Below, in pieces: positions 43,500 through 45,362 of a stretch of 45,362 nucleotides of DNA. Source of the DNA: Candidatus Poribacteria bacterium (GTDB lineage Bacteria; Poribacteria; WGA-4E; WGA-3G); NCBI GenBank assembly GCA_009839745.1, contig VXPE01000081.1, forward strand, positions 1-45,362. Direction: 5' to 3'. The first letter of the stretch is position 1. Each line of letters starts with the position of its first letter. The notes under the pieces were generated by a model, which saw only the letters and a list, made by a program, of their open reading frames with translations, had not been told where the DNA came from and made no database searches. The translations under genes and the position numbers were made by a program.

Positions 43500-44519
43500 A
43501 TGGCAAAAATGTATCGCGTCGGCTTCGCATCCCTTGTGCATGACCATGTATGGGGTGAACTTCGCTACTGGAAGGCACATCCGAACGTTGAGATCGTCGC
43601 AGCAGGCGATGTCAATGCGGAATTACGCGCCCAGTTCAGTGCAGAAGTCGGTATCAATAACATCTATAACTCTTGGCAAGAAATGGTGGAGAAAGAGGAA
43701 TTAGATATTGTTCAAGCAGCCGCGGAGAACAATGCTGGTGCTGACATCGTCGAGGCAACAGCGGCGAAAGGTATCCACGTTGTATCCGAAAAACCGATGG
43801 CGGCGCGACTCTCACAAGCAGATCAGATGCTTGCCGCAGCAGAGAACGCTGGCACCCTGTTGATGGTGAATTGGCCCACGGCATGGAGTCCACCGCTTAA
43901 CACTGCAATGAACCTCATCAAAGACGGGGCAATCGGTGACATTTTCTATTTCAAGTGGCGTTCCGCACACAACGGACCGATGGAAATCGGATGCTCCCGC
44001 TACTTCTATGAGTGGCTCTACGACGAAGAGAAGAATGGTGCGGGGGCGTTGATGGATTACTGCTGTTATTGCGCGGATATGTGTGCCTATCTCCTCGGTC
44101 TGCCACAGCAGGTAACGGCGTTCCGGGCCACCTTCGTCAAAGACTATCCGATTCCTGACGACAACGCCGTCATCCTCATGAAATACGGCAATGCGTTCGG
44201 ACTCACGGAAGCATCTTGGACCCAAAAGGTCGGTTATATCACACCGAATCCGGTGGTCTACGGCACTGAGGGTGCCCTGATGGTCAGCGGTAACGAAGTT
44301 CATCTGCATCCTGCAAACGGTGATGCTGAAGTCGTTACGCCTGAACCTCTCCCGGAAGGCAAACGCAATGCCGCGGAATATTTCATCCACTGTTTAGAGA
44401 CAGGCGAACCCATTGAAGGATTGTGCAATGCCAAGGTGAGTCGGGATGCCCAAGAGATCCTCGAAGCGGGATTGGTGTCGGCGGATAGTGGGCAGGTCGT
44501 TAACTTGCCGATGTCGTAA
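43500..44519 (+). CDS. Gfo/Idh/MocA-family oxidoreductase, second copy
   Basis: The 339-residue protein has a Rossmann-type N-terminus with an unusual nucleotide loop (YRVGFASLVHDHVWGE rather than GxGxxG) and VVSEKPMAARLSQADQ with the conserved EKP. The catalytic-domain region GAGALMDYCCYCADMCAYLL is where the family has GG...D.G.H..D; Cys replaces His there. The variant loop and Cys residues suggest a different substrate or a non-canonical member. The ribosome site is AGGAG with 9 nt spacing. It is the last gene before the RNA-guided nuclease element. Confidence 0.85.
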   Translation: MAKMYRVGFASLVHDHVWGELRYWKAHPNVEIVAAGDVNAELRAQFSAEVGINNIYNSWQEMVEKEELDIVQAAAENNAGADIVEATAAKGIHVVSEKPMAARLSQADQMLAAAENAGTLLMVNWPTAWSPPLNTAMNLIKDGAIGDIFYFKWRSAHNGPMEIGCSRYFYEWLYDEEKNGAGALMDYCCYCADMCAYLLGLPQQVTAFRATFVKDYPIPDDNAVILMKYGNAFGLTEASWTQKVGYITPNPVVYGTEGALMVSGNEVHLHPANGDAEVVTPEPLPEGKRNAAEYFIHCLETGEPIEGLCNAKVSRDAQEILEAGLVSADSGQVVNLPMS

Positions 44520-44525
44520 AGTATT

Positions 44526-44555
44526 ACGGGTGCGGTTTCAGACCGCGACCCTAGG
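44526..44555. repeat. Hairpin repeat (variable-stem family)
   Basis: TGCGGT and ACCGCG pair (ACGGGTGCGGTTTCAGACCG then CGACCCTAGG). It lies between the Gfo/Idh gene and the nuclease element. It has the general form of the hairpins at 17080 and 29666. Confidence 0.5.
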
Positions 44556-44570
44556 AACGTCAGGAGAAAT

Positions 44571-44760
44571 TGGTCAGTGACCTCGCCCTAAAGGACGAGG
44601 CTTGTTCAATACGTAAACCAACACTATAGGTTGAACGAGGGCAACTCACTGACTACCGGTAAAATATCGCATATCTTTGGCGTAGTAGCCTGCACTATGT
44701 ATCGGATACTCCCCTCGTCTGATACCACTTGGATATGTGATCGGGAAGGGGCAATACAAA
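44571..44760 (+). ncRNA. Probable omega RNA (HEARO-type) of the IscB/IsrB element
   Basis: Between the Gfo/Idh gene and the nuclease ORF the plus strand can fold into a compact multi-helix RNA. H1 is GTCAGTGA (44573-44580) with TCACTGAC (44646-44653). H2 is the hairpin 44581-44600 (CCTCG/CGAGG). H3 is CTTGTTCAA (44601-44609) with TTGAACGAG (44631-44639). H4 is ATCGCATATC (44666-44675) with GATATGTGAT (44732-44741). H5 is CGTAGT (44681-44686) with ACTATG (44694-44699). H6 is TATCGGA (44700-44706) with TCTGATA (44718-44724). A pseudoknot joins CCCCT in the H6 loop (44711-44715) with AGGGG (44747-44751). This position, directly 5' of the ORF, and this nested junction with a pseudoknot match the known omega RNA of IscB-type elements. 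The guide would be the bases immediately 5' of the scaffold (about 44550-44570). Confidence 0.78.
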
Positions 44761-44781
44761 CTCTACGGAGATTTACAAACC

Positions 44782-45362
44782 ATGTTTGTTCCAGTTGTAG
44801 ATAAAAACCAAAATCCACTTATGCCTACCAAGCCTTCACGTGCCAGGAAGTGGATACGAGACAAGAAGGCAACCCCCTTTTGGAAGAATGGCGTGTTTTG
44901 CGTTAGACTTAACGTAGACCCGTCAGATAGATATTTCCAAGAGATTGCTGTAGGCGTAGACCCCGGTAGCAAGAAGGAAGGCTTTACGGTCAAAAGCGAA
45001 TCCCATACGTATTTGAACGTTCAAGCAGACGCGCAGAATAAGGTGGGAAAGAAAGTTGAAAAACGCAGTCAATTACGGAGAGGGAGACGTTCCCGAAAGT
45101 GTCCGAACCGCAAGAATAGAACCAACAGACTTGCGAACAAAGAGCGGATACCCACAGGCACACGTGCAAGGTGGGATTGGAAACTTCGGATATTGGATTG
45201 GCTGTCGAAGTTGTATCCGATCACACATGTGTGTGTAGAGGATATTAAGGCACGCACAATACAGCATGCGAAGAAGTGGAATACGTCCTTTAGTCCGCTT
45301 GAAGTCGGTAAACAGTGGTTCTACACTGAAGTCGAAAAGCGGTGGAAAATGTTAACACTTCA
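44782..45362 (+). CDS. IscB/IsrB-family RNA-guided RuvC nuclease (partial, runs off the window)
   Basis: 193 complete codons are open from ATG 44782 to the right edge. The N-terminal PLMP domain is present (NPLMPTKPSRARKWI, Pro12 to Ile25), as is RuvC-I (VGVDPGSKKEGFTV, catalytic Asp60). The arginine-rich bridge helix is at 95-116 (RSQLRRGRRSRKCPNRKNR). RuvC-II (HVCVEDIKART) has catalytic Glu153. The 40 residues after RuvC-II (FSPLEVGKQWFYTEVEKRW) show no HNH His-Asn-His signature, so this may be the HNH-less IsrB type; RuvC-III and any HNH beyond the edge are not visible. These nucleases are guided by the omega RNA encoded just upstream to cut or nick DNA and are carried by IS200/IS605-type elements. 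No transposase is present in this window. A CGGAGA ribosome site lies about 12 nt upstream. Confidence 0.88.
   Translation, partial: MFVPVVDKNQNPLMPTKPSRARKWIRDKKATPFWKNGVFCVRLNVDPSDRYFQEIAVGVDPGSKKEGFTVKSESHTYLNVQADAQNKVGKKVEKRSQLRRGRRSRKCPNRKNRTNRLANKERIPTGTRARWDWKLRILDWLSKLYPITHVCVEDIKARTIQHAKKWNTSFSPLEVGKQWFYTEVEKRWKMLTL

What the first reader, a model, noticed from the sequence alone, without database searches (positions are those of the whole stretch)
44571..45362. IscB/IsrB-type RNA-guided nuclease with a readable omega RNA at the right edge
Seen: PLMP motif, RuvC-I Asp60, arginine bridge helix and RuvC-II Glu153 in an ORF that leaves the window, with a 190-nt upstream region forming six helices and a pseudoknot by exact base pairing. 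Known: this gene order and RNA position define IscB/IsrB elements, the ancestors of Cas9 and OMEGA systems. Inferred: an active or recently active RNA-guided nuclease in this lineage. It is the strongest candidate for an undescribed functional system here.
Basis: partly seen in the sequence, partly recalled or inferred. Interest (0 to 1): 0.9.

Follow-up and report, generated by a model that had tools for sequence, protein, structure and literature searches.

The report
IsrB element inserted at start codon
The right edge of the window holds a small mobile element with an RNA-guided DNA-nicking protein (IsrB, a Cas9 ancestor type) and its guide RNA; it belongs to a known kind, but it sits exactly between a host gene's ribosome-binding site and its start codon, and many relatives sit the same way.

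Summary
Confirmed and made more precise. From 44573 the window holds the left end and about 60% of an IsrB-type OMEGA element from a Candidatus Poribacteria genome (sponge symbionts). The contig ends inside the gene. The protein is IsrB, not IscB: relatives are complete at about 340 aa, have PLMP, RuvC-I/II/III and no HNH, and match the DtIsrB structure (8dmb) over nearly the full length (E 1e-43). The upstream RNA (44573-44781) is a real structured RNA: across 64 sequences there are 309 compensatory cells against 79 in shuffles. Rfam HEARO gives only a sub-threshold hit (27.7 bits, cut-off 83). Related genomes keep the empty site, which shows that the element was inserted, sense-oriented, exactly between the Shine-Dalgarno and the ATGA start codon of the next gene. 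The 20 bases left of the element (guide) plus ATGA (NTGA TAM) match the empty allele. Of 71 distinct insertions, 19 sit between a Shine-Dalgarno and the start of a gene of at least 100 codons (background 1-3%), and 64 of 69 are sense to the host gene (background 51%). Two annotated cyanobacterial relatives appear to do the same. System type: known. The start-codon, sense-strand siting is the noteworthy part.

The parts
44553..44572 (+). guide: 20 bases of host sequence directly left of the element (AGGAACGTCAGGAGAAATTG); includes the Shine-Dalgarno AGGAG (44562-44566) of the interrupted downstream gene
   Evidence: Identical 20 bases precede ATGAGC at the empty site in L119 and L121; guide position and 20-nt length as in DtIsrB (PMC9581776)
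44573..44781 (+). omega RNA scaffold, which is also the left end of the element
   Evidence: Element boundary from identical copies with different flanks and empty sites; R1 model hit 160.6 bits (the window was one of the 64 sequences used to build R1); covariation; HEARO RF02033 sub-threshold
44573..44580 (+). stem S1, 5' strand (pairs with 44646-44653)
   Evidence: 6 of 8 pairs with compensatory changes; 75% of cells paired
44581..44600 (+). SL1 hairpin (CCTCG...CGAGG); subterminal hairpin of the left end
   Evidence: 5 of 6 pairs compensatory
44601..44639 (+). SL2 hairpin (CTTGTTCAA/TTGAACGAG)
   Evidence: base of the stem (84% of cells paired)
44666..44741 (+). nexus stem (44666-44675 with 44732-44741) enclosing two hairpins
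   Evidence: helix 5: 97% of cells paired, 5 of 9 pairs compensatory
44711..44751 (+). nexus pseudoknot CCCCT 44711-44715 with AGGGG 44747-44751; last pair covaries T-A/A-T
   Evidence: helix 8: 97% of cells paired, 23 double changes at the outer pair
44761..44770 (+). terminal hairpin with the Shine-Dalgarno of isrB (SL7-like)
   Evidence: position as in DtIsrB SL7 (PMC9581776)
44782..45362 (+). isrB gene, 5' 193 codons, cut by the contig end
44815..44826 (+). PLMP motif
44959..44961 (+). RuvC-I Asp60
   Evidence: invariant in 37 sequences
45064..45111 (+). arginine-rich bridge helix
45238..45240 (+). RuvC-II Glu153
   Evidence: invariant
43500..44519 (+). upstream Gfo/Idh/MocA oxidoreductase gene, same strand, ends 53 bp before the element; its transcript could read into the guide
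   Evidence: transcription is inference

Best explanation
It is an IsrB-type OMEGA element of the non-autonomous IS200/IS605 kind. Shown: a structured RNA begins at the element's left end; a PLMP-RuvC protein follows, without HNH in all complete relatives; the element lies between a 20-base host sequence and (by the empty sites) ATGA, and orthologous loci lacking it keep that 20-base sequence joined to ATGA. Inferred from DtIsrB: the host sequence to the left is transcribed as the 5' guide, IsrB and the RNA nick DNA that matches the guide next to NTGA, which is the empty allele, and repair from the filled allele keeps or restores the element. Movement is by a Y1 transposase acting in trans (inferred). 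My addition: because the guide lies outside the element and upstream, the element needs a host promoter; landing on a start codon (TAM NTG plus purine equals a start codon), on the sense strand and just after the Shine-Dalgarno, provides that promoter and leaves the coding sequence whole. The siting is measured as an enrichment; the reason for it is inference. The confidence given is for the identification as an IsrB element with its omega RNA.
For: DtIsrB is the best solved match, E 1e-43 over positions 3-325 of 340, with RuvC-I/II/III aligned. No HNH in 37 of 37. RNA covariation 309 cells against 79. Exact ends from identical copies in one genome. Empty sites for the window and for two further insertions. 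Junction motifs: 53 ATGA, 8 ATGG, 6 GTGA, 3 TTGA, 1 CTGA, against NTGA/NTG/NTGG TAMs reported for IsrBs (PMC9581776). Start-codon siting with Shine-Dalgarno 19/71 against 1.1-2.6% in three backgrounds, p about 2e-14 or less. Sense orientation 64/69 against 51%, p 9e-14. Two cyanobacterial relatives (48% identity) have an annotated CDS starting at the apparent right junction. Y1 transposase in 37 of 40 genomes searched, 7 hits in this genome.
Against: The window copy's RuvC-III, C-terminal domain and right end are not in the assembly. No activity, transcription or nicking was measured. The transposase that moves the element was not identified; no IsrB copy examined carries its own tnpA. The start-codon enrichment could come from transposase target preference plus selection against broken genes rather than from a need for a promoter. 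The right junction was called preferring ATG in ambiguous cases (TTGATGA); empty sites confirm it in three loci only. In the cyanobacterial relatives the ends were read by eye, without empty sites.
Confidence: 0.9

Rival explanations
1. It is an IscB (RuvC plus HNH double-strand nuclease) whose HNH lies beyond the contig edge.
For: NCBIfam guided_IscB is the only NCBIfam model that matches all members; the window stops not far after RuvC-II, where an HNH would begin.
Against: NCBIfam match for the window is 94.7 bits, cut-off 175. The second copy in the same genome, 78% identical, and all complete relatives go straight from RuvC-II to RuvC-III with about 65 residues between and no HNH. The window sequence follows the HNH-less linker (KKWNTSFSPLEVGKQWFYTEVEKRW) to its last codons.
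Confidence: 0.03
2. A dead remnant: the RNA and protein no longer work and persist only because a transposase moves the ends.
For: Internal-deletion derivatives with an intact RNA exist; a few copies carry stops. The window copy is incomplete in the assembly.
Against: Most copies are intact; catalytic residues are present in all complete proteins; base pairs are kept by compensatory change, including in the pseudoknot; identical copies at new sites in one genome indicate recent movement.
Confidence: 0.1
3. Start-codon siting is only a by-product: the Y1 transposase prefers ATGA (TCAT on the other strand) and insertions inside genes are purged, so what survives is at gene starts.
For: ATGA makes up 53 of 71 junctions although it is about 22% of NTGA sites; genes dominate the genome.
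Against: Against intergenic-compatible NTGA sites (2.2%) and against ATGA sites (2.6%) the enrichment is still about tenfold, and sense orientation is 64/69 against 315/562 for ATGA sites, which purging of broken genes alone does not require.
Confidence: 0.4

Closest known systems
DtIsrB of Desulfovirgula thermocuniculi and its omega RNA (PDB 8dmb; Hirano et al. 2022, PMC9581776)
   Same: PLMP-RuvC-bridge helix architecture without HNH, about 340-350 aa; omega RNA directly upstream with 5' stem, hairpins, nexus stem, pseudoknot and a terminal hairpin holding the Shine-Dalgarno; NTGA TAM
   Different: Distant in sequence (E 4e-34 for single sequences); scaffold about 209 nt here against 262 nt; multicopy in Poribacteria
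RRXRR/IsrB-like proteins of cyanobacterial plasmids (Leptolyngbya WP_017291781.1, Stanieria WP_015211891.1)
   Same: 48% protein identity; R1 RNA model hits upstream; apparent right end directly before an annotated CDS start
   Different: One copy per record; different phylum
HEARO RNA (Rfam RF02033) and IscB
   Same: Same RNA position; the 5' GUCA stem and CUAAAG hairpin are shared
   Different: Below the gathering score in the window and in 20 relatives; no HNH
TnpB (IS605) elements
   Same: RNA-guided nuclease in an IS200/IS605-type element (family knowledge)
   Different: TnpB takes its guide from the right flank (family knowledge); here it comes from the left flank

Membership tests
IsrB (OMEGA nickase) | PLMP domain plus split RuvC with bridge helix | tested here: met
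   Window: PLMP, RuvC-I, bridge helix, RuvC-II; RuvC-III (H221, D224) in complete relatives
IsrB (OMEGA nickase) | no HNH domain; about 350 aa | tested here: met
   Complete relatives about 334-356 aa, Pfam RRXRR only in 37 of 37; not directly visible in the cut window copy
IsrB (OMEGA nickase) | structured omega RNA upstream of the gene with guide at its 5' end | tested here: met
   transcription not tested
IsrB (OMEGA nickase) | NTG/NTGA/NTGG TAM next to the target | tested here: met
   ATGA at the empty site of the window element; spectrum
IsrB (OMEGA nickase) | RNA-guided nicking of the non-target strand | not testable with these tools
   needs an in vitro assay
IscB | HNH domain inserted in RuvC | tested here: not met
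   Absent in the same-genome copy and in all complete relatives; NCBIfam score below cut-off
HEARO RNA RF02033 | score at or above Rfam gathering (83 bits) | tested here: not met
   27.7 bits; none of 20 relatives
IS200/IS605-type element | subterminal hairpins, no target duplication, fixed target motif at one end | tested here: met
IS200/IS605-type element | mobilised by a Y1 transposase | tested here: inconclusive
   Y1 genes are present in 37 of 40 genomes searched, this one included, but not inside the elements examined

The most novel reading that the evidence does not exclude
IsrB-type elements are start-codon specialists: their TAM (NTG plus purine) is read as a start codon, so they settle between Shine-Dalgarno and ATG on the sense strand. 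There a host promoter transcribes the guide, RNA and isrB, the host coding sequence stays whole, and the guide is a gene's translation-initiation region that stays conserved among relatives, which suits homing into them. This would be a general siting rule for guide-upstream OMEGA elements, not only a Poribacteria habit.
Probability: 0.45. Interest if true: 0.65.

Novelty: new member of a known kind. Interest (0 to 1): 0.5.

Why it matters
IsrB is the proposed ancestor type of IscB and Cas9. This clade offers many natural copies with short scaffolds (about 209 nt), exact ends, empty sites and natural guide-TAM pairs, in a phylum for which I found no IscB report in the library searched. The start-codon and sense-strand bias gives a testable answer to how an element whose guide lies outside its own left end obtains transcription, and why its TAM looks like a start codon.

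Tried and rejected
Finding the missing right part of the window copy: no further isrB fragment in the genome, and the orthologous downstream gene was not found, only short dispersed matches. Structure prediction from 37 close relatives: mean pLDDT 54.9, too poor to use, no fold search run. RNAalifold's own pairing of columns 199-201 with 213-215 was set aside for the pseudoknot, which shows double changes. Stand-alone omega RNAs: several apparent ones lie at contig ends; those read in mid-contig were mostly internal deletions of the gene, two had no recognisable gene. An own transposase inside the element: one isrB copy lies next to tnpA (L152), but that copy is inserted at the start codon of a tnpA followed by what reads as tnpB. 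An insertion before an essential single-copy gene (dnaN-like, L076): weakened, because tandem paralogues exist in related genomes. The original IscB, HEARO and transposon papers (10.1038/nature08586, 10.1126/science.abj6856, 10.1038/s41586-023-06597-1) were not held, so I could not check whether start-codon siting had been noted there. I recall, unverified, that the HEARO paper reported integration before ATGA/GTGA.

Full report
What is there. The window is the whole contig C81 of a 5.04-Mb draft genome. Relatives found in named genome records are all Candidatus Poribacteria. From 44782 an open frame runs off the contig. It matches Pfam RRXRR (1.3e-34) and the N-terminal half of NCBIfam guided_IscB below its cut-off. 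A second, complete copy lies on C79, 78% identical over the shared part (L002:1501-2526, 342 aa).

Which enzyme. In 36 relatives plus the window, Asp60 and Glu153 are invariant, and His221 and Asp224 of RuvC-III are present in all complete sequences. The only Pfam domain is RRXRR. A profile of the family finds DtIsrB (8dmb) at 1e-43 over positions 3-325 of 340, far ahead of any IscB. The protein is therefore IsrB, the HNH-less nickase type, and not IscB.

The RNA. The 209 bases from 44573 to 44781 align with 63 relatives. For the structure I named, 91.3% of cells form standard pairs, 27 of 44 pairs have double changes, and 309 cells carry compensatory changes against 79 in shuffles (0 of 500 as high); sliding partners by 1-3 columns destroys the signal. 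The pseudoknot CCCC(T/A) with (A/T)GGGG shows 23 double changes at its outer pair. Some S1 positions are often unpaired (75% in that helix), so S1 is less certain. Rfam HEARO aligns to 44573-44757 with 27.7 bits, far below gathering, and none of 20 relatives reaches gathering, so the clade would be missed by standard annotation. In outline it resembles the DtIsrB scaffold (PMC9581776) but is about 50 nt shorter.

The element and its site. Identical copies with different flanks in one genome fix the ends: left GTCA..., right ...GAAGATT(..)G before (A/G)TGA. In sister genomes the region left of the window element continues without interruption: L119 and L121 read AGGAACGTCAGGAGAAATTG-ATGAGCAATAGAATTCC. 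The window element thus sits between the Shine-Dalgarno AGGAG and the ATG of the next gene. The 20 bases to its left, which would be the guide, match that empty allele exactly, followed by ATGA, an NTGA TAM.

Is this siting general? I called both junctions for 71 distinct insertions. 34 of 71 have a frame of at least 100 codons starting at the right junction; 19 also have a Shine-Dalgarno in the left flank at normal spacing. Background: 1.1% of NTGA sites, 2.6% of ATGA sites, 2.2% of intergenic-compatible NTGA sites. Orientation: 64 of 69 are sense to the covering or next gene, against 1192 of 2359 random NTGA sites. Empty sites confirm the junction for two further insertions in many genomes each. 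Outside the phylum, relatives at 48% identity in Leptolyngbya and Stanieria plasmids have an annotated CDS beginning at the apparent right end, and the R1 RNA model hits upstream of their genes. The caveat is that my junction caller prefers ATG where TTGATGA is ambiguous; the conserved element end and the three empty sites support the choice.

How it most likely works. Shown: RNA, protein, ends, site, junction motif. Inferred from DtIsrB: guided nicking of the empty allele. Inferred here: a host transcript entering from upstream (in the window, possibly from the oxidoreductase gene 43500-44519 that ends 53 bp before the element) makes guide, scaffold and isrB mRNA together. The siting at start codons fits this need, but target preference plus purging remains a serious alternative (0.4).

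Distribution and decay. The family is found in 41 of 85 genomes of the phylum sample at 1e-40, in 5 of 22 genera, with up to 15 copies at that threshold. Counting all matches at E 0.001 there are up to 21 per genome. Several genomes hold more RNA than protein copies; those read in mid-contig were mostly gene-deleted derivatives that keep the RNA.

Verdict. Observation confirmed, interpretation narrowed to IsrB, activity of this copy untested. New member of a known kind, with an unexpected and testable siting rule.

Noticed in passing
L155, L156, L163, L167, L171, L174: Derivatives with internal deletions of isrB that keep the omega RNA and, where read, the right end; L163 keeps little more than the RNA, about 39 C-terminal residues and the end. 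They could supply guides in trans.
   Followed up: partly
L160:1495-1702 and L164:1056-1264 (in the RNA's orientation): Omega RNA copies with no recognisable isrB after them; L160 is followed within about 90 bases by another gene.
   Followed up: no
L076 and L080, position 3001; G014:C5:29968 and 31368: isrB element between Shine-Dalgarno and ATG of a dnaN-like gene in two species; relatives carry tandem dnaN-like paralogues about 1.3 kb apart.
   Followed up: partly
L152:1441-2450 (same place as L038): An isrB element inserted exactly at the start codon of tnpA in what reads as a tnpA-tnpB (IS605-type) element: one OMEGA element inside another.
   Followed up: partly
L119:2622-2700: A repeat of about 70 bases with some 35 dispersed matches in the window's genome.
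   Followed up: no
L032, L035, L076, L080, L093, L094, L113 right junctions: A subgroup with ATGG instead of ATGA at the junction and element ends ...ATG; may reflect a different TAM preference (compare BbIsrB NTGG, PMC9581776).
   Followed up: no
window 44573-44655 against L002:1295-1375: The 5' third of the window's omega RNA is unlike that of the other copy in the genome while the rest is about 80% identical; PLMP-domain types also appear mixed among copies, suggesting recombination between elements.
   Followed up: no
G000:C75:10893-10933: A 41-base stretch 83% identical to the 5' part of the window's omega RNA (E 3e-4), possibly a remnant end.
   Followed up: no
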